Both the position numbers and the translations under genes were made by a program. Source: Muribaculaceae bacterium (GTDB lineage: Bacteria; Bacteroidota; Bacteroidia; Bacteroidales; Muribaculaceae). From it: DNA of 51,256 nt. Where the stretch lies: contig JAGCRW010000020.1 of the NCBI GenBank assembly GCA_017964485.1, forward strand, positions 1 to 51,256, in the 5' to 3' direction. Positions within the stretch are counted from its first letter, which is position 1. The number at the start of each line of letters is the position of its first letter. Of the stretch, positions 1 to 16,104 are shown in pieces. The notes under the pieces were generated by a model. That model made no database searches. It saw only the letters and a program-made list of their open reading frames with translations, and was not told the DNA's origin.

Positions 1-1179
1 AAGGGTTTCCTTGTGCTCTTGATCAAGGAACAAACTGTTCATATCGGAATAAATGGAGCGGAAAATCTCGCCTGCGATGTCGATGAAAGTGACGCGATGC
101 AGCTTGTTTTTCATATCGGTGATGGTAAATACCATCTCCTGAATGACATTGACGATGGTGCTTGGCGGCAAGCTGCAATACTTGTTGCTGGCATCAAATA
201 CGTTGCGCAACTGGGTCATGTAGTGATATCCCTGGCATTTCTGCGGCTCGAGGTTGTAGTTGTTCATCGCTCCGCACAATATTGAGCCGAGAGCGCAGGT
301 CTTGCCCGATGACGGTGTGCCCCAGAAATACACCTCGGTTGACTCTCTGGTCAATACGGTGGGGATGTTGGGGTTAGGCTGGATGTCTCGCTCAACGAAA
401 TTTTGGATGGCCTGTGCCCGCTCAGTGCCATAGGTCGTGACAACGTCGTTCCATGTGATGATGTTGCTTGCGACGGCATTTTGTATTTCGTCGGCATTTT
501 TGAGGTCGTTGTTCATGTCGGCGATAAACGCGTCGTGGCCCGCTGCCGCGTCGATGCGCTCTTGCGCCTGGGTGGCGAACTTGCCTTGCGGATGCGCTTC
601 AATATAGGCTTGGAAAGCTGGGGTGTTGCCTGTGTGCAGCGCGTTTTTCCAATCAATATCGTCGGTGATGGCATCACGCATTTGGGCTATCTCGATGTGG
701 TGCTTGCCAGGGAAAGCCTGCTCGTAAGCCTCAAGATTTACAAGTGTGGGTTGCTTCTTAACTTGCACCCAGTCGGGGTCCTCTACCATCTCCTGGCATT
801 CATATATGTGTGCCCCTCCCAGTGGCTCGTAAAACTCAAGATACTGCTTGAGCAAGGGCACAGAACCACTATCAAGAATTTTTTTCCAAAAGTATTCTTC
901 GCCCGAAATGAGCGCCTGTCTGCATGGCTCGGCAAAGGCTCCTTCAGGATATATTTTTAGATAGTTGAAGAAGTCGGCGGCATCTCCAGTTTGGCATGCT
1001 TTAGTCCACAATCGGTCCTCGTCGGCCTTGAGTTTTTGCTCAATTACCTCAAGTTTCTCGGGCGATAGTTGGATGCGCTTCAACTCATCAAGGGTGATGA
1101 TGCCTCGCTGAATCGCCGTGATGAGACTTGTCACCGGCACGCCATGGGCCATTCTTAATACTTGTTCTTTAGTGGGCAT
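1..1179 (-). CDS. P-loop NTPase with TPR-like repeats (C-terminus outside window)
   Basis: Open frame of 393 codons that starts at the ATG at 1179 and runs off the left edge without a stop. Residues about 50-225 contain four degenerate helical repeats of the type W-x2-A...A-x2-YL-x2-P-G, the clearest being DWKNALHTGNTPAFQAYI followed by HPQGKFA. A Walker A motif GTPSSGKT lies at residues 287-294, and a DIAGE motif at 367-371 looks like the Walker B/G3 region of a TRAFAC-type GTPase. No signal peptide or membrane segment is visible, so it is probably cytoplasmic. It begins 23 bases after the upstream membrane-protein gene and is the fifth gene of the srfBC-like operon. The NTPase call is strong; the GTPase subfamily and the role are inference, because the rest of the domain is missing. 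The scaffold-like repeats suggest it binds a partner protein of the same system. Confidence 0.75.
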   Translation of the reverse strand, partial: MPTKEQVLRMAHGVPVTSLITAIQRGIITLDELKRIQLSPEKLEVIEQKLKADEDRLWTKACQTGDAADFFNYLKIYPEGAFAEPCRQALISGEEYFWKKILDSGSVPLLKQYLEFYEPLGGAHIYECQEMVEDPDWVQVKKQPTLVNLEAYEQAFPGKHHIEIAQMRDAITDDIDWKNALHTGNTPAFQAYIEAHPQGKFATQAQERIDAAAGHDAFIADMNNDLKNADEIQNAVASNIITWNDVVTTYGTERAQAIQNFVERDIQPNPNIPTVLTRESTEVYFWGTPSSGKTCALGSILCGAMNNYNLEPQKCQGYHYMTQLRNVFDASNKYCSLPPSTIVNVIQEMVFTITDMKNKLHRVTFIDIAGEIFRSIYSDMNSLFLDQEHKETL

Positions 1180-1202
1180 ATTATAGTTGAATAGTAGAGT
1201 AG

Positions 1203-2195
1203 TTACTGATTATTACGTTGGTCTCGCTCGGTTAAGCGACTGCGGCGCTGGGTGCCGTTGGGGCGAGTGGTGGGTGGAGTGGCGAGTGGGCTACGCTTGC
1301 CGCTGGTGCCTTGTGCCAGGTCTCGGTCAACGAGGTAGTAGGGCAGTAGCATGAAGGCGAAGCACAGCAGCGCTGCTATAATTGATATTACCGAAGGCAT
1401 CGACATGTGGGTAAGCATCTCCTTGAGCTGCGCGTTTTGGTCGGTGTATTGCTGGTAGGCGAATGGCGGGTAGTTGTTGTCGCCTTTATAGCCATGGGCT
1501 TTCTTGCTCAGATTGCTGAATGTTGCGACATTGGTCCTCACCATTTGGTCGATGCTGTTGATATATTGCGGCAAGGCGATGTTCCACACGCTCATCTTGG
1601 CGCCTGTCTCTAGGTTCTGCAATGCCTCATCGTTGGCGTGTGTCACCGAGTCGGGGAGCAATATCGTGTGGAGGCTGTTGATCATTCGGTCGATTTTCGC
1701 GGTGTTGCTGTCGCTGCCAGGGAGTCCGAATATTTCCTGGTATTCCGATGGGTTGCTCACACCATGGCCCGCATCTACGGCATTGAGGTAGTCGCGGGTC
1801 TTTGCCTCACGCTCTTTCACATAGTTGTTGTAGGCTACCACGCTCTGAGAGCCATATTGGTGAGCCTTCTCAAAAGTTGCTGTGATCTCCTTTTGTTTGA
1901 CCACAAGGTTGATGAAATGAGCAAATGGCATAGTGCTCAGTGCCAGCACAGCAAGCATGATGATGCCACACACAATCTGCACCACGTTGCCTGTAGTTTT
2001 CCATCTGCTGGCTTTTGCCCTGCACATGATGATGATGCATGCGAGAGTCACCGCTATTAGAGCTACCGAGCAGATTATACCTTGCACAATGTCACCGTCC
2101 TTCCAATACACTATTCCCATAAATACGATGTAGGAATATATCAGAAGGATGATGATGGAGATGACAAAGACAAAGTTAAACTTTTTATTGCTCAT
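1203..2195 (-). CDS. four-helix membrane protein of the srfBC-like operon
   Basis: Protein of 330 residues that I do not recognise as a named family. Three hydrophobic segments near residues 8-28, 38-58 and 72-92 are followed by a soluble region of about 170 residues (100-265) and a fourth segment near 268-290. The C-terminal 40 residues are rich in Arg, Thr and Pro and strongly basic, so by the positive-inside rule the tail is cytoplasmic and the soluble region periplasmic. The start lies 7 bases from the stop of the subtilase gene, which implies translational coupling. Its position between a membrane-anchored protease and a P-loop protein suggests it links periplasm and cytoplasm in the same complex; it could also be a substrate of the protease. 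The membrane topology is seen in the sequence; the role is inference. Confidence 0.7.
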   Translation of the reverse strand: MSNKKFNFVFVISIIILLIYSYIVFMGIVYWKDGDIVQGIICSVALIAVTLACIIIMCRAKASRWKTTGNVVQIVCGIIMLAVLALSTMPFAHFINLVVKQKEITATFEKAHQYGSQSVVAYNNYVKEREAKTRDYLNAVDAGHGVSNPSEYQEIFGLPGSDSNTAKIDRMINSLHTILLPDSVTHANDEALQNLETGAKMSVWNIALPQYINSIDQMVRTNVATFSNLSKKAHGYKGDNNYPPFAYQQYTDQNAQLKEMLTHMSMPSVISIIAALLCFAFMLLPYYLVDRDLAQGTSGKRSPLATPPTTRPNGTQRRSRLTERDQRNNQ

Positions 2196-2202
2196 AAGAC
2201 GT

Positions 2203-4755
2203 TTATGTTTCTCTTTTTACCTTACTCACTGCTTTGTCGGCTTGGATTGCAGGGCCGCTCTGGTTGCCGTTGCGAATGCTCACGCCAGTTGAGGTAAATG
2301 CCGAAAGGGCTTGGCTCACGGTGACGTTTTTGTTTACCGATTTCATCAGCGCCACCACACCTGTGACAATTGGCGCTGCCATACTAGTACCGTCTTGTGC
2401 CTGATAGCGGTTGCCGGGCATAGAACTGTAGATGCCCTCGCCAGGCGCCGAGACATAAACGGTGTTGCCGAAGTTGGACCACTCGGTCATGGTGTTGTTC
2501 TTTCCTATGGCGCCAACGTTGATGGTGCTCTTTGACCTCAACTGTGGCTGCATGGCTGCCAGCAGATGGCTGTTGCCAGCGGCAAAGACGATGATGGTGT
2601 TTTTCTTGCCTGCCTGCTCAAATACCCATTTCCACACGTCCTCGGCGGGCTTGAAATAGCTGCGCGCCACCTCTTTCTGCTCCTCGATAGGCACGATGTC
2701 ACCTAGTTCCACAGGGTAGGCGGTGCCAATGGATACGTTCACCACATCGGCATTGTTGCGGACGGCATACATGATGCCGCGAATAACTCCCGAGATGGTG
2801 CACTGCCCGTTGTCAAACACTTGCACGGGCATGATTTTGCAGTTGGGGGCTACTCCTGCCGCGCCTTGGCTCACTTTATTGGTGTTGCCCGCGGCAAGAC
2901 CTGCCACATGGGTGCCGTGTCCTATTCCTGAACTCAGGTGGTCGTCACAGCGAAACACGTTGTAGGGCTTGACAATGCGTCCTGAGAACATCTCGTGGTT
3001 CAGGTCTATGCCATCATCAACCACGGCGACTGTCACGCCAGCATTGCCCTTAGAGATTTGCCACGCTTGCTTGATGCGGGCAGCCTCAAGGTGCCATCCC
3101 TTAGGCAGATTGGAACGCGACCCGCCTGGCTGTTGTCCGCCAGCCATAATTACCTCGTCAACTACTTTAAACTTCATTGACGGTATCTTCGACGGCAACT
3201 CGTCGCGAATCTTAGGGCGTTCCTCAGGCGGGACCTGCACCAATAGCCAACGCGTGTTCTTGTCTTTACCTATAATCTTGTATTGCTCGCCAGGATAATT
3301 GCGCTTGAACTCGGTGGCAAACTTCTGGAAATCGGGGTTGTCATTGTCAAAGAAGATGTTGAGCCTGTCGCTCATCACCTCGGGGCTGTTGGGGTCATCG
3401 GGATTGAGACGGCCTCGGTCAGATATGGGGTCGCCATTGTCGTCAACTAGCGGTGGTGCCACCTCGTCGTCGTTGTCCAAGTCATCGGAGATGTCTCTCA
3501 CGCCCCGACGATTGCCATTGTCGTCAATATACTCACCATCGTCGGTGCGAATGCGCTCAATTACCCGCTCATCGTGTATAATGACGCGTGTGCGCCCTCG
3601 AATAGTGTCGGTTGTGTCGGCACCAACTATATTGTCATGAAGATCACGCACGCAGCCTCCCAATGTACCCGAGCATGAGGTGCAGCGGGTGAGCACTATG
3701 GCGAGGAGCAAGAACAGTAGCAGTGCGAGTAGCGCCATCAGCAGCCAACGTAAGCAGCCATCACCAAACCAGCGTTTCCACCAAGGAATTCTGGAATATT
3801 GTGCCACAAATGTGGTGTTGCCGGTGATGGGTTTATCCACTGGTTTGTCCCAACCCAGGAATGAATATCCCTTGAGCGGTGTTACGAGAGGTATCATAGC
3901 AGGCGTGAGCACGGTGCCTGGAGGCACGGTCAGAGATGGAGATGTGCCGCTCAGTGTTCCGTAGCTGCCGTTCTCAAAGTTCACCTGGCACGTTTGTGGT
4001 CCAGGCACGGGTGGCAGCTCAGGCTGGTAGGGTGGAGGAGTCTCGACCTTCTCGCATTGTGCCACAAAGTGCAGGTCCTCGTTGACCTGTGCATTATTGG
4101 GGTCAAACGGCAACCAGCTCACGAAAACAAAGCCCTCGTCAGGAACAACTTTGGGAACATCGATGCCCGGATGCAGTTTGTAACCGTGACGCCGCATGAA
4201 CGATGTAGTGCCTTGCAGGATGGCGTTGTTGGTCTCAAACGAAACCCTGTGGAGGCGGGTATCATCAACAACGGTAACGACCGAGGTATTCATGCTCTGC
4301 CCAGGCATTGGCATTATGCCCCACACGCCCAGAATCACCTGCGACTGAGTGACAAATGCCATCTCATCGATATCGGTAGAGTCGATATACTTGATGAGGC
4401 AGTTGAAGTAGGGCTTCGCATCGTCACCCACTTGTGTAACGAGGTTGCGGAAGTAGTTGGTGGCTTCGGCAATATATTGCTTGGCGACAAAATATTGCTG
4501 TGTTCCAGCCAGGGAAGAGAGTTTCACGGCATTAGCAAACTCTGGGTCAACATGCCATTCCAGTCCGTGTAGGGCTGGCTCAAAATAAGGCATGGCGAAG
4601 AAATTCTTGTAACGAGGATCGGTGACATACTTGTCGAGCAATCTCTCGAAGTCGTCTCGCCTGTTATAGAACGGTGTGCCGCCCAGGTTCTCCACGATGA
4701 AGATGCTCATGGGAGACGTGGTACACAGTCGCACTTTATTTTTTACGTTTGGCAT
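2203..4755 (-). CDS. membrane-anchored subtilisin-like (S8) serine protease with InlB-type repeats
   Basis: Protein of 850 residues. Residues 1-165 are an unrecognised domain. Two InlB B-repeat-like modules follow (about 168-235 and 256-321, the second with the GYSFLGWDKP signature), then a proline-rich link, a basic stretch WWKRWF and one membrane helix near 337-356. After an acidic linker and a small alpha/beta region (465-535) comes a complete peptidase S8 domain: Asp580 in AVVDDGID, His613 in GHGTHVAG, oxyanion Asn728 in AAGNS and Ser791 in DGTSMAAP. All catalytic residues are present. There is no N-terminal signal peptide. Basic residues before the helix predict N-in/C-out topology, placing the protease in the periplasm and the repeats in the cytoplasm. 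It sits third in the operon, 41 bases after the SrfC-like gene. The protease identity is firm; substrate and trigger are unknown. Confidence 0.9.
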   Translation of the reverse strand: MPNVKNKVRLCTTSPMSIFIVENLGGTPFYNRRDDFERLLDKYVTDPRYKNFFAMPYFEPALHGLEWHVDPEFANAVKLSSLAGTQQYFVAKQYIAEATNYFRNLVTQVGDDAKPYFNCLIKYIDSTDIDEMAFVTQSQVILGVWGIMPMPGQSMNTSVVTVVDDTRLHRVSFETNNAILQGTTSFMRRHGYKLHPGIDVPKVVPDEGFVFVSWLPFDPNNAQVNEDLHFVAQCEKVETPPPYQPELPPVPGPQTCQVNFENGSYGTLSGTSPSLTVPPGTVLTPAMIPLVTPLKGYSFLGWDKPVDKPITGNTTFVAQYSRIPWWKRWFGDGCLRWLLMALLALLLFLLLAIVLTRCTSCSGTLGGCVRDLHDNIVGADTTDTIRGRTRVIIHDERVIERIRTDDGEYIDDNGNRRGVRDISDDLDNDDEVAPPLVDDNGDPISDRGRLNPDDPNSPEVMSDRLNIFFDNDNPDFQKFATEFKRNYPGEQYKIIGKDKNTRWLLVQVPPEERPKIRDELPSKIPSMKFKVVDEVIMAGGQQPGGSRSNLPKGWHLEAARIKQAWQISKGNAGVTVAVVDDGIDLNHEMFSGRIVKPYNVFRCDDHLSSGIGHGTHVAGLAAGNTNKVSQGAAGVAPNCKIMPVQVFDNGQCTISGVIRGIMYAVRNNADVVNVSIGTAYPVELGDIVPIEEQKEVARSYFKPAEDVWKWVFEQAGKKNTIIVFAAGNSHLLAAMQPQLRSKSTINVGAIGKNNTMTEWSNFGNTVYVSAPGEGIYSSMPGNRYQAQDGTSMAAPIVTGVVALMKSVNKNVTVSQALSAFTSTGVSIRNGNQSGPAIQADKAVSKVKRET

Positions 4756-4796
4756 AATAGTTAAGTCTGATATTTATGTAAATAATAAATTCTCAA

Positions 4797-7610
4797 TTAG
4801 TTTGCGTCAATCTCGTTGATGATTTCTCCTAGTCGCTTGTTGGCGGCAATGTCGTAGTCGGGGAGATCGCACGAGAGGATATAGCCCACCTTCAGATACT
4901 CAATCCAGGTCCACTCAAAGCCGTAGCGTGGCAGGCGTGAGAGAGCCTTGCGGTCGTTGGGGTTATAGCCCTTCTCCCGCAGTCTGCGGTTGACTTGGTC
5001 GAGCTCTTCGAGGAGTTTCACTCCAGTGAGTTCGTTGTGCGTTGAGAGCATCTCTTCGCTGATGTTGAGTTTCAGTCGGGCATTCTTCTCAAAGATATTG
5101 TCGAGATGCTTGCTGTCGATGTAGTCAAAGCCGAAAGTGGTGACGAAGTGGTTGAACTCCATCGCGAGATAATCGGCTATGATTGCCACGGCACTGTCTT
5201 TGTCAAAGGTGGTGATAAACTGGTCAATGCGCTTGGTGATGCGGTCGTGCATTCCCAGGAAGCGGTAGAGCCTGATGAGGTTGGTGGTCATATCGCTCAC
5301 GGCGGGGATGTCGTCTTTGCACTTTGGCACAACATATTGGGTGAGATATTCTTCTATCCAATATTTCTCGACAATAGAGGCTACTTGCTCGGCCTGAGAG
5401 TTGACCATACGGCTGGCATTCAGTAGTTTATTGATGTCAATGCCTTCGGCTGATAGCATCTGTGCGCATTCTTCCTCGGTATCTACTCCGAGCTGGTCGC
5501 ACAGTTTCTCGAGGTTCTGGGCACGTGAGGAATCGGTGCTTAGGCCAAAACGCATGAAGAGCGCCTTCTCCGAGTCGGGCTGCGATGTGGTGGTAACCGT
5601 GTTGTTGAGGGCGTTGTGTATTTTCTCATAGAGGTGAGGCTCATCAATCATCATGATGTCGAGCATCTTGCCAAAGGCTGAAGGGTCGGTGCCCTCGATT
5701 TTGCCCAGTTGCAGGTTGGCTTGAGCAGCCTGGCGTTTAGCCTTTCTTATCTCCTCGTCGGCCGAGCCACTGTGGTAGTACTTGGTTAGCAAGCTCTTGA
5801 GTGTGGCAACAAGACGTGTTATCTCGGTGCCGAACATATTGTCACGGGCTTGCTTCACGCGTGGCGCGAGCTGGTTGAGGGCGGCGATGATGGGCTTGGT
5901 GCCGTCATTGTTGAGGGTCGCCGCGCTTTCCCACGCCTGGTTGGCGTCAACAAAGTGCTGCTGCACGAAGTCGTAATTGACAAAAGAGTCCTTGAGGCAC
6001 TGCATGAAGTTGGGGAATGCCGAAGGGATGATTTCCTCTATCTCGGGCGACTTGGTGTTTGGGTTGTAGCCTGTAAACGACTTGGTGGAGTATTTGAAGT
6101 CGCGCAGCATGAAGATGCTGCGGAAGGGGTGCCCGGTAGTCCACTGGTTGAACCAGTGAGTCTGGTCCTCATCGGTATTGGCGCGCAGCACTTCCTTCTC
6201 AAGTACAATCTTGAAACGGTTGTCCCAGCGTCGACGCAGCTCTTCGAGTTTGGCAGGGGAGTCATTGGTCTGGTATTCCAGGTCGAGGTTGAAGAATGTG
6301 CTGATGATGAACAGCGGCGATATTTCGGTGTCGCGCATATAAGTGTCGCGCTGTGCTGCGTTGGCCCCCACGTTGTTATTTACCCATTGCTCAAGGACAA
6401 TACCCATCTTGCTCTCGGCCGACTGCATATTATTGTGGCAGAGCATGAGCGAACTGATGCGCTTGGTGTCGCTGTAGCGGTTGAAGAGGTAGGTCACCTT
6501 GCCTCGTCGTAGCACCACCGAGAGGTTTTTGCCGTTGGTGATTTTCTCGGATGCCATATTCTCGGGGCGTCGCTCGCCAGGGAAGTCGAGAATGTCGAGG
6601 CAGGAAAGGAAATTGCGTGTCTCGCTCTCGAGGTTGGGCAGCGACATATAGAGTTCGGCGACTAGAGCGCTCAACTCGCCCTTGCGCATCTCTATCGACA
6701 TGTTCTGCTGAGTGGTGACGATTGTCGTTGGGCGATAGTCGGGAAGTTCTATCTCACTTTCGTCAAAAATCTCATCTAGGCGCGCAACGTCGAGCAGAGT
6801 GCCATGTTTCTTGAGCACCGCGTCAAATGGCACATACACCGTTGAGTTGAACCTAATGGAGCGGTAGGCAGCGATGAGAGTATCGAAGAGGCGGTTTATA
6901 GAGGAGTTGTCAAACCACAGCAGTTTGATTGCCGAGAGCAGTTGGTCGTCGGTAAGGCGGTTCACGTTGAACAAGAGGAACGAGAACAGTCCCGATTCGG
7001 GGTCGGTTAGATTGGCGACACGCTGCTTCATGGTGGAGTTGCGCAGGTAGTCGTAGATGTCCATCACGTCGTCTTGAGTAAGGATGGGTGATGGGTTGGG
7101 CACCGACGAAACATCCACCGAGTCGCAATATTGGCGTATGTAGTCGATTTTCTTGATTTCGGAGTTATCGTAGTCGGTCTGCGTGTGATAAGCCTCGCAC
7201 AAGACGAGGATGATGTCGGCAACCGACAGCAGTCGTGCTTTGAGATAGCCTTCAGGGACAGCAGGGTCGGTGTTAGATGTGAATCGTGTCACAACGCCAG
7301 TGGCCTCAACTCGCGAGTTGGGGTTGCTGGGATTTATCTCGTCGATGAAGTTGTACTCGCGGCGACCATCGGTAACTGTGAAAGGTTTTCCGGGGTCGCT
7401 CATCAGCGCGCTGACGAGGTAGGACTTACCCATCTGGCTCTCGCCAAAGGCTGCGGTGGAGCAGCGCTCATCGGCGGCAAACTGAATCTTCTTGAATGCA
7501 CGGCGTAGGTTTACCAACTGCTCAAGGTAGTTCTGCCTTTCGCTATCGGGGACATTCGACTGCCAGGAAATGGCTTTCTCTACGATGTGAAGATATTGAT
7601 TGATATTCAT
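4797..7610 (-). CDS. SrfC-like P-loop GTPase (virulence factor SrfC family)
   Basis: Protein of 937 residues. A P-loop GESQMGKS lies at residues 56-63, followed by the conserved INP...EATGVVTRF region (about 92-110) and a G3-like DFPGE at 342-346. This order (G-x-SQ-x-GKSYL, then INP and TG-VTRF) is what I know from the enterobacterial putative virulence factor SrfC family (Pfam Virul_Fac), and the length fits. The long helical C-terminal half has no recognisable motif and no membrane helix, so the protein is probably cytoplasmic. It follows the SrfB-like gene by 79 bases, the same B-then-C order as in enterobacteria. SrfC proteins are thought to be GTPases; the cellular process is unsettled, and the role here must be inferred from the protease and membrane neighbours. 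Confidence 0.82.
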   Translation of the reverse strand: MNINQYLHIVEKAISWQSNVPDSERQNYLEQLVNLRRAFKKIQFAADERCSTAAFGESQMGKSYLVSALMSDPGKPFTVTDGRREYNFIDEINPSNPNSRVEATGVVTRFTSNTDPAVPEGYLKARLLSVADIILVLCEAYHTQTDYDNSEIKKIDYIRQYCDSVDVSSVPNPSPILTQDDVMDIYDYLRNSTMKQRVANLTDPESGLFSFLLFNVNRLTDDQLLSAIKLLWFDNSSINRLFDTLIAAYRSIRFNSTVYVPFDAVLKKHGTLLDVARLDEIFDESEIELPDYRPTTIVTTQQNMSIEMRKGELSALVAELYMSLPNLESETRNFLSCLDILDFPGERRPENMASEKITNGKNLSVVLRRGKVTYLFNRYSDTKRISSLMLCHNNMQSAESKMGIVLEQWVNNNVGANAAQRDTYMRDTEISPLFIISTFFNLDLEYQTNDSPAKLEELRRRWDNRFKIVLEKEVLRANTDEDQTHWFNQWTTGHPFRSIFMLRDFKYSTKSFTGYNPNTKSPEIEEIIPSAFPNFMQCLKDSFVNYDFVQQHFVDANQAWESAATLNNDGTKPIIAALNQLAPRVKQARDNMFGTEITRLVATLKSLLTKYYHSGSADEEIRKAKRQAAQANLQLGKIEGTDPSAFGKMLDIMMIDEPHLYEKIHNALNNTVTTTSQPDSEKALFMRFGLSTDSSRAQNLEKLCDQLGVDTEEECAQMLSAEGIDINKLLNASRMVNSQAEQVASIVEKYWIEEYLTQYVVPKCKDDIPAVSDMTTNLIRLYRFLGMHDRITKRIDQFITTFDKDSAVAIIADYLAMEFNHFVTTFGFDYIDSKHLDNIFEKNARLKLNISEEMLSTHNELTGVKLLEELDQVNRRLREKGYNPNDRKALSRLPRYGFEWTWIEYLKVGYILSCDLPDYDIAANKRLGEIINEIDAN

Positions 7611-7614
7611 AATT

Positions 7615-7685
7615 CAAGTGTTAAGTTTCAAGTGTTAAGTGTTAAATGTCAAAAGTGATTTTCACACTTAACACTTATTACTTAA
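7615..7685. repeat. AAGTGTTAAG-type repeats with 13-bp inverted pair
   Basis: The gap between the srfB-like and srfC-like genes consists of tandem AAGTGTTAAGT-like units. AAGTGTTAAGTGT at 7630-7642 is an exact reverse complement of 7664-7676, so the operon mRNA can form a 13-bp stem with a 21-base loop just before the srfC-like start codon. It lacks a following T run, so it is not a standard terminator; it may set relative expression or mRNA stability. Confidence 0.7.
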
Positions 7686-7689
7686 TATA

Positions 7690-10600
7690 TTATGCATTGT
7701 TTAAATCGGTTGTTGCAATATTCAAGTTAAACTCTCCTGAGTCGAGCCAGTAGCATTGTGGGTCGTTGATGCTTTGCACTTGCAGAACGAAGTCGTCGGC
7801 CTTGAGTTCCTCGCCGTCGCTGCCAGTGACAGCGGCGATTGTGAGTTGCTCCTTGTCCTCGTCATAGGCTTCGCGCTCTATCTCAAATGTGAACGGCCCC
7901 TTCTTGAACAACTCCTCGCGGTATTCGCGCAGCATGCGTTGCTGCTGCTCGGGAGTGAGCATCTTGTTCTTGCTTATGCGCTCCTTGATGCGGCGGTCGT
8001 CAATATCGAGGACATAGAACGGCCTGAGCGGGTAGATGCCCATGTCAAACTGTTTTGCCCCGATGTAGCACGGGAAGGAGTTGATAGTGATGCGTCCGTT
8101 GTTAATGGTGGGAGTGATGATGCACTCCTCTTTGGGGATGCCGCCCATCTTGTAGAAGCTTTCGGTGGTTGGCACGAGCTTGTCGCTCAGGTCGCTCAGG
8201 TCGAGCGAGAACTCGTTGAGGCCTCCAGCCATTGATGCGAGGTAGCCAATCATGGCTCCCACTGGGACGATGCTCTTGGTGTCGTGCATGTAGCCGTTTT
8301 CGTCCTTGAAGGGGTACCAGCGGCCTATGCGGTACTTGCCCAGTACGATGAGTCGGTTGGGGCTCACGGGGAAGTACTTGAGGAAGCAGTCCTTGATGGG
8401 CTTGAGCATGGTGGGGCGTCCTGAGAGCACCACGATGTCGCAGTCGTGGGCGTAGAGCAGGGTGGAGATTGACTCTATGAGTGAGTCGAGCGACTTCTCC
8501 ACATGCTGCGAGAGCAGGTTGTGGTCGTAGGTCCACACCACTTCGCTGAGTTCAAAGCCGAAGCGGTCTTTGAATGCTTCGCACACGATATCGCTGGGCT
8601 TACTGTCGCCAAACATCTCGTCGTAGCCAATCTCGAGGTAACGCTCTCCCTCGCTCAGCAGGTTGAGGAAGCGGTACATGACGGGTACGTTGACCTGCAT
8701 GTTGAAGTCGCGTCGCATGATGCGGTCCTTGAAGGTCATCATGTTATTGTCCTGACCGAAGAAGTGGTACAGAATCTTATAGGCCTCCTGATGGCTCTTG
8801 CCTGCCTTCTCGGTAAGGTGGCGGTATAGGATGCCTTTGTCGCTCTCTATAATCACGTTTTGTACCAGCAGTTGGAGCATGTCGTCGCCTGCAACGTTGA
8901 AACTGTCCCAATAGATTGGGTCGGGCTTGATTTGCGAGGGGTTGCTCTCGTTGAAGCGATATTGGCACACCATTACGTCGGAGGTGCCGGCGCCAATATC
9001 TACCGAGCCCACTTTCAAGGTGTCGCACTCCACGCCGTCGATGTCGCGCTTCTTGCCGTAGAGCTTGAAGAAGAGGTCGCTGCGGTTTTTGTAGCGCTCG
9101 CAGAACTGCGCGTAGAGATAGACAAACTGTGAGCATGTGGCCTCGTCGTAGTACCACTCCTTGTGCTCGTCGTCATCGTAGCGTCGTGGCTTGTTGCCGG
9201 GAATCACCTGCATCTGCAGTGCTATGCTGCCTGGATCAACGATGTGATGATAGGAATTGATGATTTTCACCGCATCGTCAAAGCTGCTGTAAAGGGCTTG
9301 ACGCTCCACTCGCGACATCGCCGTTGGGCAGGTGATAATCACCCGCTCGAGGCGGCGTGGGGTGTTGCGCAGGTCGTGGCGCTCACGCGACTGGAAGCTG
9401 TTGATTTGGGTGATGGCCTGCTCTATAATCTCGATGAAAGCGAGTGTCATGAGCGAGCGGCGCGAGTAGTGCGCTCCAATGCCGTAGCCTTCGGCGTTGT
9501 AGGTGCCGTCGTCGTTGATAAAGCTTGTGAGGCCCTCGATGATGGGTGGCAGCGAGTTGTTCTCATCGCCAATGTTGATGAAGCGCCATTCGTTCTCGGT
9601 GCGCTTTTTATCCCACAGGTAGCGCTTGGGGCTGGAGTTGGTGGAGAGTGTCTCTAGGCCCAGGTTGAGTGCCGTGGCCTCGTGGTTGAGGTAGTTGGCC
9701 TCGCGTCCCAGCCTGATGATACTCGGCCACACGAATTGGTTGCTGCCGGCGATGTTCTTGCCTATTGTGACCTTGCGGAACGCCAGTCGCATGTCGAAGG
9801 TCTCTTCCACTCGGTTTAGGTCGCCGTTAGGGAGTATCACATGTGTGAAATTCTGGAGTCGCAAGGGGTCGACCTTGGTGAAGTCTTGCGTGAACTTATT
9901 GTTCTCGAAGAGCAGTGCCGAGGTGCGAGAGTTGCCAATGTCGATAATCATCTCCACGTTGACAATGTTCACGTCGCGGTCGCGCATGAGCTTCACGGTG
10001 GGGAAGAAGTCGTCGAGGCTGCTCAGGTATTTTATAAGCATCAGGTAGGTGGCTAGGAACTCATATTTGTGCCTGCCGTCCTTGAGCTCGAGCATGTCGA
10101 AGTTCTTGGCGTCGGGGTAGGCGATTTCCATCAGGTAGTCGCGTACCCAGTTTTTGTTCCATGTGCAGTAGTCGATGAGCTGGCGCTCGTTGCCGCACAG
10201 CCCAAAGATTTTCTCGGTCTCGCCATCGCTCATGAATACGGGGAACTCCTTGTAGGCGTCAAGGGTGTTGTAGCGCGCCTGGGTGTCGAAGGCGAGCACC
10301 ACATCGGCGGTGAGGATGCCGACATTGGTCTCGCGCGGCACTATCATGAATTTGCACCAGTTGTAGGGCCCTTTCTTGTAGTCGCCCGTATCGTCTTTCT
10401 CGATATACGGCATTGGGAGCCACACATTGAAGTAGTGGCTCAGGAACTTGTTGTTGGCGGCTAGTTTCGAGAAGAAGATGCCCAGGCTGTCTTCCTCATT
10501 GTCGGCAATGTTAAACTGCTTCACCTCGGGGTTGGCGAGGATTACTGCCTCGCTGGTGGTGAGCTTGTTGTCGTTGTCAAGATAGCCTTTCTCTCGCAGC

Positions 10601-10776
10601 TGCGAGGTGAGCACCACAATCTGGTTGCTCAGGGTATAGGCAAATTCCAGTCTCCACTGAAAGCGCTCGTCGTCAAACGACTCGGCGAAGCGGCACTTGA
10701 ATCCCTCATTGAGGTTGATGTCGATGCGCTTCGACAGCAGTTGAATGCCAGAATTGGCGATTAATGAATAGTCCAT
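7690..10776 (-). CDS. SrfB-like protein, actin/Hsp70-fold ATPase (virulence factor SrfB family)
   Basis: Protein of 1028 residues. It opens with SLIANSGIQLL, the N-terminal signature I associate with SrfB. A phosphate-1 loop of the actin/Hsp70 superfamily, IIDIGNSRTSAL, lies near 277-288; a phosphate-2-like SVDIGAGTSDVMV is at 591-603; an adenosine-type VVLSGRP is at 782-788. These three motifs in this order indicate an ATP-binding actin-like fold. The C-terminal YWLDSGEF motif also fits SrfB. There is no membrane segment. It is the first gene of the minus-strand operon and has a good Bacteroidetes promoter about 100 bases upstream. SrfB proteins are annotated as virulence factors because of their discovery in Salmonella, but the biochemical role is not established. 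The family call is strong, the function open. Confidence 0.85.
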   Translation of the reverse strand: MDYSLIANSGIQLLSKRIDINLNEGFKCRFAESFDDERFQWRLEFAYTLSNQIVVLTSQLREKGYLDNDNKLTTSEAVILANPEVKQFNIADNEEDSLGIFFSKLAANNKFLSHYFNVWLPMPYIEKDDTGDYKKGPYNWCKFMIVPRETNVGILTADVVLAFDTQARYNTLDAYKEFPVFMSDGETEKIFGLCGNERQLIDYCTWNKNWVRDYLMEIAYPDAKNFDMLELKDGRHKYEFLATYLMLIKYLSSLDDFFPTVKLMRDRDVNIVNVEMIIDIGNSRTSALLFENNKFTQDFTKVDPLRLQNFTHVILPNGDLNRVEETFDMRLAFRKVTIGKNIAGSNQFVWPSIIRLGREANYLNHEATALNLGLETLSTNSSPKRYLWDKKRTENEWRFINIGDENNSLPPIIEGLTSFINDDGTYNAEGYGIGAHYSRRSLMTLAFIEIIEQAITQINSFQSRERHDLRNTPRRLERVIITCPTAMSRVERQALYSSFDDAVKIINSYHHIVDPGSIALQMQVIPGNKPRRYDDDEHKEWYYDEATCSQFVYLYAQFCERYKNRSDLFFKLYGKKRDIDGVECDTLKVGSVDIGAGTSDVMVCQYRFNESNPSQIKPDPIYWDSFNVAGDDMLQLLVQNVIIESDKGILYRHLTEKAGKSHQEAYKILYHFFGQDNNMMTFKDRIMRRDFNMQVNVPVMYRFLNLLSEGERYLEIGYDEMFGDSKPSDIVCEAFKDRFGFELSEVVWTYDHNLLSQHVEKSLDSLIESISTLLYAHDCDIVVLSGRPTMLKPIKDCFLKYFPVSPNRLIVLGKYRIGRWYPFKDENGYMHDTKSIVPVGAMIGYLASMAGGLNEFSLDLSDLSDKLVPTTESFYKMGGIPKEECIITPTINNGRITINSFPCYIGAKQFDMGIYPLRPFYVLDIDDRRIKERISKNKMLTPEQQQRMLREYREELFKKGPFTFEIEREAYDEDKEQLTIAAVTGSDGEELKADDFVLQVQSINDPQCYWLDSGEFNLNIATTDLNNA

Positions 10777-10872
10777 CTTTGTTCTATAGCTTTGATATTG
10801 GTTTTCTCGTTAATAATTGGTTGTGAATAATTCTATTACTGACACTTTTGATCAATATTGCAAAATCAATGC

Positions 10873-10901
10873 CAAAGTTAATGTTTTTTTGTTATAGACA
10901 A
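10873..10901 (-). promoter_or_regulatory. promoter of the srfBC-like operon
   Basis: On the minus strand TTG (10899-10901) is followed after 18 bases by TAACTTTG (10873-10880), a full match to the Bacteroidetes -7 element TAnnTTTG. It lies 97 bases before the srfB-like ATG. The 266 bases between 10777 and 11042 hold only this promoter and the terminator of the next operon. Confidence 0.7.
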
Positions 10902-10965
10902 TACAGATTTCTATTTTTTAACTAATGTGTGGCCGTAATGTTTCAAAATAGAGCGAGAGCATTTT

Positions 10966-10998
10966 ATACAAAAAAACATCGGGTTGTGGCCCGATGTT
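10966..10998 (-). terminator. intrinsic terminator of the ECF sigma/DUF4252 operon
   Basis: AACATCGGG (10975-10983) and CCCGATGTT (10990-10998) form a perfect 9-bp stem with a 6-base loop. Read on the minus strand the stem is followed by a run of eight T. It lies 45 bases after the stop of the DUF4252 gene at 11043. Confidence 0.85.
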
Positions 10999-11042
10999 TC
11001 AAGGTTGTTGTTTACGTTTTTTTAAAAAGCCTGAAGCAATAA

Positions 11043-11522
11043 TTACTGCTTTCCTCCTGTGAATCCCTGCAAGTCTTCGAGAGTCATGGAGCCGTAGATG
11101 ATTATCACCGAAGTCTCTTTGTCTTGCGCCAGCAGCAAGAAAACGTTGTTGCCGCCGCTGTCGGTCTTGGCATAGATTGACGCTTGGTTGCCCTGCTCGT
11201 TGACGTCGATTACGCTTTCGAAATTGTCGCTCTCAATCCAATTCATGCATTCACGTGCGAGTTCCTCGGCCGCCTGTGACGTGCTTGCCGAGATGATTTC
11301 GAGTCGGTCCATCTTGTCGGCAAAATTGCCAATGTTGAGTTTGCCACTAAACCCTTCACGGCCGAGCGTGCCCTTATTTGACATCATCTTCATGGCCGCC
11401 TTGCCAATGGTAACGCAGGAATAGCCTTCTTTACCCTTAAATTGCTTGGTAAGCGATTGCTGTGCGCTTGCCGCCATGCCCACTGCGAGCATAATAACGA
11501 GTATAAAAAATGTCTTTTTCAT
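11043..11522 (-). CDS. DUF4252 domain exported protein
   Basis: Protein of 159 residues with a signal peptide (basic MKKT, hydrophobic core, cut near ASAQQ). The body has the DUF4252 layout: a serine-rich start, LEIISAST in the middle and a C-terminal strand set ending in DLQGFTGG. DUF4252 proteins are small exported Bacteroidetes proteins of unknown function, usually near ECF sigma factors. It is the last gene of a four-gene operon, 2 bases after the anti-sigma-like gene, and is followed by a terminator. It is a diverged paralogue of the first gene of the same operon (12772-13227). Family call good, function unknown. Confidence 0.75.
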   Translation of the reverse strand: MKKTFFILVIMLAVGMAASAQQSLTKQFKGKEGYSCVTIGKAAMKMMSNKGTLGREGFSGKLNIGNFADKMDRLEIISASTSQAAEELARECMNWIESDNFESVIDVNEQGNQASIYAKTDSGGNNVFLLLAQDKETSVIIIYGSMTLEDLQGFTGGKQ

Positions 11523-11524
11523 GA

Positions 11525-12256
11525 CTATATTAAATGTTGCTGAATAGTGTTGTTGATATCGTTGATTTTCTCACCAGCGTCATTAAGCTGGTCCATACCC
11601 TTGTTGAGGACAGTGGAGAATTTCTCGAGTGCCGCGATGGCAATCTCCTCGTCGCTACTGCTGAGTCCCGCGTCTTGTCCCTGAGTGCTATTGGTTGCCT
11701 GCGCCAGATGCTCCACATTGCCCTTATACGAACTTGCATGCCTGGCGCGTGGCTGAATTTCGTGATCGTGATTATGAACGTGGTCGGTTTCCTCTATTTT
11801 AGCCGAAGGGGCTTGTGCGGGTTCTTCAATTTTAGCTGAGGGAGCTTGTGCAGGTTCATCGATAGTTTTGGCTATAGTTTTGTGCTGTTTCGGTGCAGGC
11901 ACCTGCATCTGTGGCGTTCCGCCGCGCATCATCCACAACCCGACTGCCGCTATCACAGCCACCGATGCTGCTGCAGCCCAGGCAGTCCGTTTCCTGAACA
12001 ATGGCGCTACCTTTGCCTTGCGAATCTTCTTCGCCTGGTGGTTCTCTTGTGCCTCCCACTCGTCGATCTTGCTGCTGAGCGATGCCTCCAAATCGGCAGG
12101 AACTTCCACTTCGTCCTCCATCTGGTCCAATGCCTGCATGAGCAAGGCATCGGCATCATCACCACCAAGCGCTCCACGCAACTGATGCTCCTCGTCGAGA
12201 GTGGTCTCGCCGCGATAGTACTTGTTGAGCAATATGTCTAAATCGTTCTTGTTCAT
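11525..12256 (-). CDS. probable membrane partner (anti-sigma-like) of the ECF sigma factor
   Basis: Protein of 243 residues. The N-terminal half is cytoplasmic, opening with DILLNKYYRGETTLDEE, the start typical of Bacteroidetes regulators encoded after ECF sigma genes. One membrane helix lies near residues 93-110. The outer part contains two copies of an EPAQAPSAKIEE unit, a His-rich HVHNHDHE stretch and a C-terminal coiled coil (LNKGMDQLNDAGEKINDI). It overlaps the sigma gene by 4 bases (ATGA), so the two are translationally coupled, as expected for a sigma/anti-sigma pair. The FecR sensor domain is absent. The His-rich patch could bind metal. The role is inferred from context. Confidence 0.65.
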   Translation of the reverse strand: MNKNDLDILLNKYYRGETTLDEEHQLRGALGGDDADALLMQALDQMEDEVEVPADLEASLSSKIDEWEAQENHQAKKIRKAKVAPLFRKRTAWAAAASVAVIAAVGLWMMRGGTPQMQVPAPKQHKTIAKTIDEPAQAPSAKIEEPAQAPSAKIEETDHVHNHDHEIQPRARHASSYKGNVEHLAQATNSTQGQDAGLSSSDEEIAIAALEKFSTVLNKGMDQLNDAGEKINDINNTIQQHLI

Positions 12257-12759
12257 GATGATAAAACGTTTTGGAATTGAGTTCTCAGTGTTTTTCTCGC
12301 TCGGCTTAGTAGCACTCTAGCGTTGATGGCAGTGAGTCCTGTAGCCTTTTCTATCTCCTGCATCGAGCATCCATTAATGTCGCGCAGTCGCACCACTTGT
12401 TGTTGCTGTGCCGGCAGTCGTGCCAGGCATTGGTCGAGCAGATGTGCCGCCTGCTGGCGCTCGATGTGCTGTGAGGCATCTTCATTGCCAGCGATGGGCA
12501 GTTCCTCGGGTGGCTTGTCAACGATGTCGATGCTTGCCGCTCGATGACGGTCAAGACACAGGTTGCGCACCAGCGTAACGCAGTAGGCTTGAGAGTTGTC
12601 GATATCGGCCAGCGAGTCGCGTCGGTTCCACATCTTCATATAGGCATCCTGCACGGCGTCTTTGGCGTCGTCCTCGTTGCCAAGCAAGAGGTAGGCCACC
12701 TTGTAGAGTTTGGCGTTAAGAGGCAGGAACCGCTGTTTAAACTCGTCGGCGTTCATCAA
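12253..12759 (-). CDS. ECF-type RNA polymerase sigma factor
   Basis: Protein of 168 residues with both ECF domains. Region 2 contains LLGNEDDAKDAVQDAYMKMW and then YCVTLVRNLCLDRHR; region 4 contains LARLPAQQQQVVRLRDING and a helix-turn-helix ending in INARVLLSRARKTLR. Length fits the family. It is the second gene of the operon, 12 bases after the first DUF4252 gene, and overlaps the anti-sigma-like gene by 4 bases. It directs RNA polymerase to a small regulon, likely for an envelope signal and perhaps including its own operon. Two start codons (12759, 12756) are possible and differ by one residue. Confidence 0.9.
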   Translation of the reverse strand: MMNADEFKQRFLPLNAKLYKVAYLLLGNEDDAKDAVQDAYMKMWNRRDSLADIDNSQAYCVTLVRNLCLDRHRAASIDIVDKPPEELPIAGNEDASQHIERQQAAHLLDQCLARLPAQQQQVVRLRDINGCSMQEIEKATGLTAINARVLLSRARKTLRTQFQNVLSS

Positions 12760-12771
12760 CTCGCTGCAAAA

Positions 12772-13227
12772 CTACTTGCCGAAGTTCACGTATTTATTGG
12801 CATAATCAGGATTGATGTTTCCTTCCATCAAGACGATTGCCACGTCGTCGTCCTCAACAGCAATAATGAGCATTTTGTTTATCAACTTGTCATTGCCCTG
12901 AGTGAGTATTAATGCGCTCTCGCCTTCATCACTGGCGTCAACCATCACGTCAAAGTCATCGACACCTTCTTGCATAATAGATTTGGCGGTTGCAAGCTGC
13001 TCGCTTGAGGGATTCTCGATGGTAAGAATCCTCATCGACGTGATGTCTTTAAGCGCCCCCGACTGGTCGGCGCCCATGCTCATGGCCATGTTGATCATGT
13101 TCTCGTCAATCACCATGTCCTGCATATTGTCGGCCTTTGGGAAAGCGTTAAACACCTCGTCGATTGTCTTGCTGAAAGCTGTGGCACCAATCATTGCCAC
13201 CAGCGCTAAAACTAATAATTTCTTCAT
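12772..13227 (-). CDS. DUF4252 domain exported protein
   Basis: Protein of 151 residues with a signal peptide (MKKLLVLALVAMIGATAFS). The remainder matches the DUF4252 pattern: helix with INMAMSMG, strand MRILTIENPS, and an acidic VEDDDVAIVLMEGNI C-terminal part. It is the first gene of the ECF operon and probably exported to the periplasm. A second DUF4252 protein closes the same operon. Function unknown. The region upstream has only a near match to the -7 element (TACCTTTA near 13275). Confidence 0.75.
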   Translation of the reverse strand: MKKLLVLALVAMIGATAFSKTIDEVFNAFPKADNMQDMVIDENMINMAMSMGADQSGALKDITSMRILTIENPSSEQLATAKSIMQEGVDDFDVMVDASDEGESALILTQGNDKLINKMLIIAVEDDDVAIVLMEGNINPDYANKYVNFGK

Positions 13228-13362
13228 GATTAAAAATGTTATTTTTGGTGTGAATTAAAATGGTCTCTTAAATCAAGACGTAAAGGTAATAGAAAATGTT
13301 ACAACAATTATTAGTTTTTTCAAAAAAAATGATGAAGTGGGGAAATATTGCGGTAAAAATAT

Positions 13363-13370
13363 TATCTTTG
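13363..13370 (+). promoter_or_regulatory. -7 promoter element of dnaX
   Basis: TATCTTTG is an exact TAnnTTTG match, 26 bases before the dnaX ATG. No convincing -33 TTTG is seen at the usual distance. Confidence 0.55.
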
Positions 13371-13396
13371 TGGACTGATATCAAAATGTGCATGTC

Positions 13397-15166: not shown

Positions 15167-15275
15167 TGCATAATTCATAATGCACAATGCACAATGCATA
15201 ATTGGGCGAACGCACCTTTATACAAAAACGTCGTCACAAGTTCGGTGACGACGTTAATTATACATTATGCATTCT
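15164..15275. terminator. dnaX/dapF convergent terminator region with TGCATAAT repeats
   Basis: AACGTCGTCAC (15227-15237) and GTGACGACGTT (15245-15255) form a perfect 11-bp stem with a 7-base loop between the convergent genes. On the minus strand it is followed by TTTTTGTATA, so it serves dapF best. The gap also contains repeated short units of the type ATAATGCACAATGCA (15168-15205), echoed in reverse at 15258-15273. Confidence 0.75.
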
Positions 15276-15276
15276 C

Positions 15277-16104
15277 TTAAATAGGCAATTCTATGTCGCC
15301 TTCAAAGACCTCGGTGGCGGGGCCTCGCATGTAGATGTGGTTGTCGCTCTCGCGCCACTCTATCTCGAGTGAGCCGCCATCCATTATTATCGTCGCACGG
15401 CGGGCGGTGCGTCCCGTGAATGCCGCCGCCACGAGCGTGGCACTGGCTCCTGTGCCGCACGCCATAGTGATGCCGCTGCCTCGTTCCCACACGCGCAAGC
15501 GGATGTTGCCATCGGGCAATATTTGGGCAAATTCAATGTTGCACCGCTGTGGGAAGCGCGAGTGGAACTCTAATTCTGGACCTACCTTTGCAAGGTCGAT
15601 ACTTTCAACATCATCTACAAAAATCACATAATTAGGATTTCCTATCGATACAAACACCCCATTGGGCAGCGGTTCGCCCTCAGTCAAGAACTGAGAGGGA
15701 TCGTTGAGCACCGGCTCCATAAGGTCAACCGAAACGCTCTGCACCTTGTTGTTATTGTCAACATCGAGATATAGCATCTTGATGCCAGCGCGCGTGAGCA
15801 GGCTTATGGTGGTTTTGGTGGTGAGGCCGTGTTCATAGACATACTTTGCGACGCATCGGCTAGCGTTACCGCACATCTGCCCCTCGAGGCCGTCGGCATT
15901 GATAATGCGCATGGTGAAGTCGGCCTTGGGCGAGCGGCCAATCAGTATCAGTCCGTCGCTGCCAATGCCTGTGTGTGGCTTGCTCCATGCTATTGAGGCC
16001 TTGCTAGGGTCGGGAATGGTGTTGTACTCGGTATCGACATAGATATAGTCGTTGCCCAGCCCATGCATTTTTACAAAGTGTATCTTTTTAGGTTTGCTGT
16101 CCAT
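15277..16104 (-). CDS. dapF: diaminopimelate epimerase
   Basis: Protein of 275 residues, the usual length. It interconverts LL- and meso-diaminopimelate for lysine and peptidoglycan synthesis in the cytoplasm. Both catalytic cysteines are present: Cys78 in GQMCGNASRC and Cys216 in MACGTGAS. The N-terminal MHGLGNDY and the repeat of the two-fold pseudo-symmetric fold (SIGNPNYV in the second half) fit the family. A perfect promoter lies just upstream, so the gene is transcribed alone. In many Bacteroidales dapF is followed by an LL-DAP aminotransferase gene; that is not the case here. Confidence 0.96.
   Translation of the reverse strand: MDSKPKKIHFVKMHGLGNDYIYVDTEYNTIPDPSKASIAWSKPHTGIGSDGLILIGRSPKADFTMRIINADGLEGQMCGNASRCVAKYVYEHGLTTKTTISLLTRAGIKMLYLDVDNNNKVQSVSVDLMEPVLNDPSQFLTEGEPLPNGVFVSIGNPNYVIFVDDVESIDLAKVGPELEFHSRFPQRCNIEFAQILPDGNIRLRVWERGSGITMACGTGASATLVAAAFTGRTARRATIIMDGGSLEIEWRESDNHIYMRGPATEVFEGDIELPI

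What the first reader, a model, noticed from the sequence alone, without database searches (positions are those of the whole stretch)
1..10901. srfBC-like operon coupled to a membrane-anchored subtilase and a second P-loop protein
Seen: one minus-strand transcript unit with a SrfB-like actin/Hsp70-fold protein, a SrfC-like P-loop GTPase, a tethered S8 protease, a four-helix membrane protein and a P-loop protein with TPR-like repeats; gaps 79, 41, 7 and 23 bases; one promoter. Known: SrfB and SrfC are paired in enterobacteria, where the third gene is srfA. Inference: here an ATPase/GTPase switch in the cytoplasm may control a periplasmic protease through membrane partners, as in signal-gated conflict or envelope-surveillance systems. 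I know of no description of this five-part set.
Basis: partly seen in the sequence, partly recalled or inferred. Interest (0 to 1): 0.85.

Follow-up and report, generated by a model that had tools for sequence, protein, structure and literature searches.

The report
Srf NTPases coupled to periplasmic subtilase
A bacterium of the Bacteroidota carries a conserved operon of about nine genes in which cytoplasmic nucleotide-driven switch proteins, labelled virulence factors elsewhere, appear to be wired through the inner membrane to a protease on the other side; it may be an envelope-guarding machine, but its function is untested.

Summary
The five genes are real and their families check out: SrfB, SrfC (Virul_Fac), a tethered subtilase with an intact triad, a four-helix membrane protein (TM4), and a P-loop protein with TPR-like repeats related to DO-GTPases. 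The window ends at a contig edge. The operon continues on another contig of the same genome (21-base overlap) with X6, X7, an SrfA-C-like protein and a zinc-ribbon/BACON protein: about nine genes. SrfB-SrfC-S8 keep order and strand in 43 of 43 Bacteroidota loci; TM4 and the GTPase occur in 41 each. srfA is not missing but split: the protease's N-domain is the SrfA N-domain (32 of 43 loci), and a separate membrane protein carries the SrfA C-domain. In Proteobacteria the same N-domain precedes trypsin-like or vWA domains, so it looks like a docking module for swappable periplasmic outputs. A membrane-protein/DO-GTPase pair also occurs without srf genes. Best reading: an NTPase-gated protease machine spanning the inner membrane. 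An anti-phage role is not excluded but has little support: no phage or viral SrfB, no defence family recurring in more than 2 of 133 flanking proteins (top 25 of 63 shown), one BREX neighbour. Function is untested.

The parts
7690..10776 (-). SrfB, 1028 aa, taken as an actin/Hsp70-fold ATPase; phosphate motifs near invariant
   Evidence: Pfam PF07520 9.6e-178; glycines of DIGNSRT and DIGAGT invariant in 36 of 36 relatives; motif meaning is recalled
4797..7610 (-). SrfC, 937 aa, P-loop GTPase-like; Walker A GESQMGKS, DFPG motif
   Evidence: Pfam PF10139 1.3e-98; GxSQxGKS and DFPG invariant in 36 of 36 relatives; weak guanylate-binding-protein matches, best E 0.024
2203..4755 (-). Membrane-tethered S8 subtilase, 850 aa: SrfA-N domain, one TM helix, protease domain
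   Evidence: Pfam PF00082 8.3e-47; D/H/S triad in 36 of 36 relatives
4306..4755 (-). SrfA-N domain (about aa 1-150 of the S8 protein), cytoplasmic by inference
   Evidence: Profile hits to proteobacterial SrfA, i-E down to 2.8e-11; hhalign probability 99.0%
3688..3744 (-). Single TM helix of the S8 protein (aa 338-356)
   Evidence: Kyte-Doolittle scan
2308..3042 (-). Subtilase catalytic domain (aa 572-816), periplasmic by inference
   Evidence: Pfam match; PDB sequence matches, best AK.1 protease and thermitase
1203..2195 (-). TM4, 330 aa: four TM helices, large loop between helices 3 and 4
   Evidence: Kyte-Doolittle scan; present in 41 of 43 loci
1..1179 (-). GT5, 393 aa, cut by contig edge: TPR-like repeats plus start of a DO-GTPase-related domain; last 157 aa on G000:C8:15401-15874
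   Evidence: hhalign of the family to DO-GTPase1 97.5%
10873..10902 (-). Probable operon promoter (Bacteroidota -7 TAACTTTG, imperfect -33 ATTG)
   Evidence: Sequence read; consensus recalled; not listed by the strict search
10966..10997 (-). Probable terminator of the upstream ECF-sigma operon (hairpin plus T-run)
   Evidence: Sequence read

Best explanation
A protein machine at the inner membrane in which NTPase switches gate a periplasmic subtilase. SrfB (actin/Hsp70-fold ATPase) and SrfC (P-loop GTPase-like) assemble on the cytoplasmic SrfA-N domain of the S8 protein. The TM4/DO-GTPase/X6/X7 set, with fast-evolving membrane-bound parts, reports an envelope disturbance and drives the NTPases. 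Their change of state clusters or unlocks the tethered protease, which then cuts envelope targets. Shown here: families, gene order, conserved motifs, homology of the S8 N-domain to SrfA-N, homology of GT5 to DO-GTPases. Inferred: topology, physical assembly (reported in print for the Xenorhabdus SrfABC proteins only), the signal, the gating and the targets.
For: SrfB-SrfC-S8 in the same order and strand in 43 of 43 loci, TM4 41, GT5 41, X6 39, X7 33; 12 of these 18 misses lie at the end of a contig or of the stretch fetched (36 of the loci supplied the profiles, 7 did not). Protease triad, SrfC P-loop, SrfB motifs and GT5 G-E pair conserved. The S8 N-domain profile, run against 1490 six-frame ORFs in 18 non-Bacteroidota srf loci, hit 28 ORFs at E 10 or better, all on the srfA side of srfB, in 16 of 18 loci (13 at i-E 1e-4 or better). 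hhalign 99.0% for S8N versus SrfA (16 SrfA rows, themselves found by that profile), 0.2% versus GAP1 as control. The same domain precedes trypsin in three proteins and vWA in two. Components co-diverge in the 26 loci with all seven (r with SrfB 0.89 to 0.99), X6, X7 and TM4 changing fastest. Print: SrfA, SrfB and SrfC bind each other (PMC6950479 abstract); srfB and srfC beside TagQRST/PpkA genes, a transmembrane signalling path (PMC3608642 passages); DO-GTPases predicted to act in membrane-related stress (PMC11237479, one passage). vWA, ABC and FGE genes follow srfC in L082 and L088.
Against: 11 of 43 loci lack a detectable SrfA-N domain; in 10 of them the protease keeps only a tail of about 30 residues before the helix, so the domain is not indispensable. 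X6 and X7 match nothing known (X7 was not searched against PDB). L024 lacks TM4 and X7; L092 lacks TM4, GT5, X6 and X7. Topology is from hydropathy only. The r values do not correct for shared ancestry.
Confidence: 0.43

Rival explanations
1. An anti-phage or other conflict system: GTPase/ATPase sensors detect invasion and unleash a protease that kills or arrests the cell.
For: DO-GTPases are core parts of predicted conflict systems with variable effectors, peptidases among them (PMC7159879, sections 27-28 read). Patchy presence: 17 of 101 genus genomes, 31 of 247 in the family draw. The Runella plasmid copy lies next to a BREX operon. Some flanking proteins match PADLOC candidates strongly, one each for PDC-S01 (1.8e-166), PDC-S02 (8.6e-55) and mad3 (1.1e-30). 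Fast-evolving parts.
Against: No SrfB match in 50,697 phage records; none confirmed in viral contigs. Among 133 flanking proteins no PADLOC family of the 25 shown (63 matched) hits more than 2; no background set was scanned, so enrichment is neither shown nor excluded. GAP1 and GASH not found. PADLOC matches of the S8 protein are to a subtilase model and partial IetS models.
Confidence: 0.22
2. An envelope assembly, maturation or export apparatus: the tethered subtilase processes surface or exported proteins, as mycosin does in type VII secretion, with the NTPases as motor.
For: Best NCBIfam match of the protease is T7SS mycosin, 133.2 bits. NTPases, membrane parts and a protease together are a layout seen in export machines (recalled).
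Against: Far below the mycosin cut-off of 278.75 bits. No secretion family recognised among the operon proteins scanned. Patchy presence argues against housekeeping.
Confidence: 0.2
3. A host-directed toxin or virulence factor, as the names SrfB and Virul_Fac say.
For: Xenorhabdus SrfABC reported as cytotoxic to cultured cells (PMC6950479, abstract and introduction). SrfB relatives also in Salmonella, Yersinia and 114 Klebsiella plasmid records.
Against: No hydrophobic helix on SrfB or SrfC of the window. Also present in rhizobia, Methylococcus, Terasakiella and freshwater Runella. Membrane anchors on other parts fit a cell-bound machine (inference).
Confidence: 0.07

Closest known systems
srfABC operon of Proteobacteria
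   Same: SrfB and SrfC homologues adjacent; SrfA-N and SrfA-C domains both encoded in the operon
   Different: SrfA is split: N-domain fused to a subtilase, C-domain on a separate membrane protein; TM4, DO-GTPase-related GT5, X6 and X7 added; no TagRST-type genes recognised
DO-GTPase (GTPase-centric) conflict systems of PMC7159879
   Same: DO-GTPase-related G domain with the conserved glutamate after the Walker B glycine; membrane parts; HSP70 partners occur in some of those systems, as an actin/Hsp70-fold protein does here
   Different: No GAP1 or GASH detected; one GTPase with a TPR-like N-half; profile score below the Pfam cut-off
SrfA-N plus trypsin-like protease proteins of Alphaproteobacteria (L082, L085, L087)
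   Same: Same layout: SrfA-N domain, TM helix, serine protease
   Different: Trypsin fold instead of subtilase; gene lies upstream of srfA and srfB
Type VII secretion mycosin
   Same: Tethered subtilase working beside NTPases (mycosin biology recalled)
   Different: Below the equivalog cut-off; no T7SS genes recognised

Membership tests
SrfB (PF07520) | Profile match above curated cut-off over full length | tested here: met
   593.7 bits against 27.1, profile 12-991 of 992
SrfC / Virul_Fac (PF10139) | Profile match above cut-off; intact P-loop | tested here: met
   331.8 bits against 28.1; GxSQxGKS invariant in 36 of 36
srfABC operon | srfA gene directly upstream of srfB | tested here: not met
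   The three genes upstream are DUF4252, an unmatched protein and an ECF sigma factor
srfABC operon | SrfA domains encoded in the operon | tested here: met
   SrfA-N on the S8 protein; SrfA-C-like protein on contig C8
Peptidase S8 | Profile match and Asp-His-Ser triad | tested here: met
   160.3 bits against 21.8; triad 36 of 36 relatives; activity not testable
DO-GTPase (PF19975/PF19993) | Profile match above Pfam cut-off | tested here: not met
   15.0 bits against 27 for the window fragment; full-length relative L025 14.5 bits; best E among 35 relatives 0.0005
DO-GTPase (PF19975/PF19993) | Homology of G domain and conserved Walker B glutamate | tested here: met
   hhalign 97.5% to DO-GTPase1, 96.5% to DO-GTPase2, 0.4% to GASH control; other P-loop families not used as control. 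[DEN]x[AS]GE in 35 of 35; similar motif in 6 of 6 DO1, 5 of 6 DO2, 4 of 5 stand-alone GTPases
GTPase-centric conflict system (PMC7159879) | GAP1 partner next to the GTPase | tested here: not met
   X6 versus GAP1 hhalign 0.1%; no GAP1 Pfam hit in 33 X6 proteins
GTPase-centric conflict system (PMC7159879) | GASH or FNIII component | tested here: inconclusive
   X6, X7, TM4 and GT5 do not match GASH; no FNIII hit by Pfam in X6, not tested by fold
T7SS mycosin (TIGR03921) | Equivalog cut-off | tested here: not met
   133.2 bits against 278.75
Known anti-phage systems (PADLOC) | Full set of system proteins | tested here: not met
   Only subtilase and partial IetS matches on the S8 protein and one weak hit (0.0054) on SrfB, five proteins scanned
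SrfABC secreted toxin | Export and action on other cells | not testable with these tools
   No experimental data for these proteins

The most novel reading that the evidence does not exclude
SrfA-N is a general cytoplasmic docking domain that lets one SrfB-SrfC NTPase engine drive swappable periplasmic outputs (subtilase in Bacteroidota; trypsin, vWA or a beta-domain in Proteobacteria), and in Bacteroidota this engine is merged with an independent TM4/DO-GTPase sensor module. That would make srf operons a widespread class of output-swapping machines spanning the inner membrane, misnamed as virulence factors.
Probability: 0.35. Interest if true: 0.85.

Novelty: new variant of a known kind. Interest (0 to 1): 0.62.

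Why it matters
SrfB and SrfC are widespread and named as virulence factors, yet a 2013 paper (PMC3608642, passage) says their function is still unclear. Finding the SrfA N-domain fused to proteases of two unrelated folds gives a concrete, testable hint of an output: regulated proteolysis in the envelope. It also ties the srf genes to DO-GTPase relatives and warns that the virulence label on commensal and soil bacteria may mislead.

Tried and rejected
X6 as a GAP1 relative: rejected, hhalign 0.1% and no Pfam hit. X6 as homologue of the gene after srfC in Proteobacteria: the matches centre on the TM helix. X6 versus the third gene of the stand-alone modules: not detectable (0.9%), so only the GTPase (99.2%) and, weakly, TM4 (94.4%, mainly one helix pair) link the two. 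An S8-TM4 fusion in L067: rejected, the joint frame seems to run through the normal gap and the usual TM4 start, in a stretch that begins at a contig end. Phage or plasmid carriage: no phage hit and no confirmed viral-contig hit; 142 plasmid records, all under 60% identity. Defence-island test: left open. Insertion-site test: in G031, G050 and G070 the operon's 3' end lies near the same leuS/rdgB genes (names from letters and memory) as on C8, upstream flanks differ, and in four genomes without SrfB other genes follow leuS-rdgB; suggestive of a variable site, not pursued. SrfC as a dynamin/GBP relative: PDB matches too weak to claim (E 0.024); SrfB had no significant PDB match (FtsA E 0.34). 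A mean identity of 63.9% printed for the S8 N-domain did not look right (some rows lack the domain) and is not used.
Full report
WHAT IS THERE. The window is contig C79 of the genome held as G000. Minus-strand genes at 7690-10776, 4797-7610, 2203-4755, 1203-2195 and 1-1179 are separated by 79, 41, 7 and 23 bases. Pfam names the first three SrfB, Virul_Fac (SrfC) and Peptidase_S8, all far above their cut-offs; the other two have no match above cut-off. Gene 5 is cut by the contig end. A profile of full-length relatives found its last part on contig C8 of the same genome, whose last 21 bases equal the first 21 of the window. Reading away from that end on C8 (locus L140): rest of GT5 (15401-15874), X6 (13784-15361, 525 aa, one TM helix), X7 (12980-13768, 262 aa, N-terminal helix), an SrfA-C-like protein (12206-12940, 244 aa, one TM helix) and a zinc-ribbon/TM/BACON protein (10883-12175). 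That C8 follows C79 is an inference from the overlap and from relatives L025 (G031) and L026 (G070), where all nine lie in this order on one contig.

CONSERVATION. SrfB occurs in 17 of 101 genus genomes, 31 of 247 in an even draw from the family and 2 of 395 in a draw from the phylum, one of them the window's own. I fetched neighbourhoods for the 16 other genus genomes and for 20 of the 25 family genomes outside the genus, plus G479, a Runella plasmid and four named Bacteroidota contigs L089-L092 (taxonomy of L091 and L092). L093, a fifth such contig (8.9 kb), was left out. With the window that is 43 loci: SrfB, SrfC and S8 in 43 of 43, always in that order and strand; TM4 41, GT5 41, X6 39, X7 33, SrfA-C-like 10 (many stretches end before it). 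Of the 18 misses of TM4, GT5, X6 and X7, 12 lie at the end of a contig or of the fetched stretch; the rest are L024 (no TM4, X7) and L092 (none of the four). The profiles were built from 36 of these loci, so only seven are independent; five of the six non-window ones have SrfB-SrfC-S8-TM4-GT5-X6 (one extra frame in between in L090, two in L091).

ACTIVE SITES. The Asp-His-Ser triad is intact in 36 of 36 relatives. SrfC keeps GxSQxGKS and DFPG in 36 of 36. SrfB keeps the glycines of DIGNSRT and DIGAGT in 36 of 36. GT5 keeps the P-loop glycines and lysine and the G-E pair in 35 of 35. Reading these as actin-like, Walker A and Walker B motifs is recalled knowledge. SrfB and SrfC have no significant match to a solved structure.

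SRFA IS HERE, IN TWO PIECES. A profile of the full S8 proteins matched non-protease genes upstream of srfB in Proteobacteria, chiefly in the N-terminal 150 residues. A profile of that region alone (26 of 36 rows carry it) was run against 1490 six-frame ORFs of at least 80 aa from 18 non-Bacteroidota srf loci. At E 10 or better it listed 28 ORFs, all on the srfA side of srfB (in L103, and one frame of L099, on the other strand), in 16 of 18 loci; best i-E 2.8e-11, 13 loci at 1e-4 or better. No hit came from L105, cut near srfB, or from L109, a Phycisphaerae. The annotated SrfA-position gene of L082 scored only i-E 0.033 and would not stand alone. Profile against profile: 99.0% for S8N against 16 SrfA proteins (15 of them clear finds of that search), 0.2% against GAP1. 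The aligned family shares an A-x-P motif and a terminal W-G. Several of these proteins carry a second domain beyond the TM helix: trypsin in L082, L085 and L087, vWA in L086 and L099 (the L082 frame starts upstream of the annotated gene that Pfam saw). The small protein on C8 matches the C-terminal part of proteobacterial SrfA (L107, i-E 2.8e-7; hhalign 96.5%) and the C-terminus of the S8 protein of L090. Against this: 11 of 43 loci lack a detectable SrfA-N domain; in ten (L069-L078) the protease keeps only a short tail before the helix.

THE SECOND P-LOOP PROTEIN. GT5 is a TPR-like half (YfiO, TPR and BamD matches) plus a G domain. Of 35 relatives 8 match DO-GTPase1 and 5 DO-GTPase2 at E 0.1 or better (best 0.0011 and 0.0005), weaker than the Pfam cut-offs would require (inference for members whose bits were not shown). 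hhalign gives 97.5% and 96.5% to DO-GTPases from six loci (GAP1-N1 confirmed by Pfam in L116 and L117, GASH annotated in the four plasmid loci), 0.4% to GASH. Five other Bacteroidota genomes (L118, L119, L141, L142, L143) have a GT5-like GTPase between a membrane protein and a third gene, with no srf or S8 match in the stretches fetched (5.5 to 18 kb); in both that were scanned (L118, L119) the GTPase passes the DO-GTPase1 cut-off. So the operon looks like two modules put together. The link for the membrane protein is modest (94.4%, mainly one helix pair; only L118 by direct profile) and for the third gene is not shown (0.9%).

HOW IT MAY WORK. In print, Xenorhabdus SrfA, SrfB and SrfC bind one another (PMC6950479; I saw the abstract, introduction and first results). 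In host-associated Deltaproteobacteria srfB and srfC sit beside TagQRST and PpkA genes, a transmembrane signalling path (PMC3608642; passages seen). L082 and L088 have vWA, ABC and FGE genes after srfC. DO-GTPases are predicted to act in membrane-related stress (PMC11237479; one passage seen). Putting these together, SrfB and SrfC probably act on the cytoplasmic SrfA-N domain and change the state of whatever lies beyond the helix; here that is a subtilase. The fast-changing X6, X7 and TM4 (21, 23 and 29% identity over the 50 locus pairs where SrfB averages 51%) are the best candidates for sensing. Signal and target are unknown.

RIVALS. A conflict role remains possible: DO-GTPase kinship, patchy presence, a BREX operon next to the Runella copy, and single flanking proteins with strong PADLOC matches (PDC-S01, PDC-S02, mad3). 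Against it: no SrfB in phage records, none confirmed in viral contigs, no PADLOC family among the 25 shown recurs in more than 2 of 133 flanking proteins, and GAP1/GASH are not found. Without a background set the flank test decides nothing. An export or maturation role like that of mycosin is about as likely. A host-directed toxin is least likely.

NOVELTY. Searches combining SrfB/SrfC/srfABC with operon, GTPase, conflict, DO-GTPase, Tag, Prevotella, phage-defence and subtilisin terms showed, in the titles and abstract starts listed (lists were capped), no paper on this operon; the library lacks most subscription papers and no supplement was read. The DO-GTPase paper PMC7159879 has zero occurrences of SrfB and of SrfABC; I read passages and its sections 27 and 28. 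I file it as a new variant: both parent kinds are known, while the combination and the split SrfA are not described in what I could search.

Noticed in passing
window 11043-12759: An ECF sigma factor, an unmatched (perhaps anti-sigma) protein and a DUF4252 protein lie directly upstream on the same strand, ended by a hairpin before the srf promoter; a possible envelope-stress neighbour.
   Followed up: partly
window, whole: The Bacteroidota promoter pattern TTTG-N19-22-TAnnTTTG occurs 9 times against 0.51 expected in shuffles.
   Followed up: no
L118 (G530) and L143 (G482): A large gene (1781 and 1778 aa) precedes the stand-alone GTPase module; the one in L118 has RHS repeats, the one in L143 was not scanned.
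   Followed up: partly
L081 (Runella plasmid pSP2_1): The srf operon lies about 1.3 kb downstream of a BREX operon.
   Followed up: no
L140:10883-12175 (contig C8): Last gene of the run: zinc ribbons (below cut-off), TM helix, BACON domain and DnaJ-like CxxCxGxG repeats (read from the letters, not from a profile).
   Followed up: partly
L144 (G000:C10): A second protein matching parts of the S8 profile and a TPR protein similar to GT5's N-half lie a few genes apart in the same genome.
   Followed up: no
L086, L094, L095, L099, L103, L106: Gene sizes and helices after srfC look like the vWA, ABC ATPase, permease and FGE genes annotated in L082 and L088; not confirmed by profile.
   Followed up: partly
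plasmids collection: 114 of 142 plasmid records with a SrfB relative are Klebsiella.
   Followed up: no
flanks of the Bacteroidota srf loci: Single flanking proteins match PADLOC models PDC-S01, PDC-S02 and mad3 strongly; which loci they come from was not shown.
   Followed up: no
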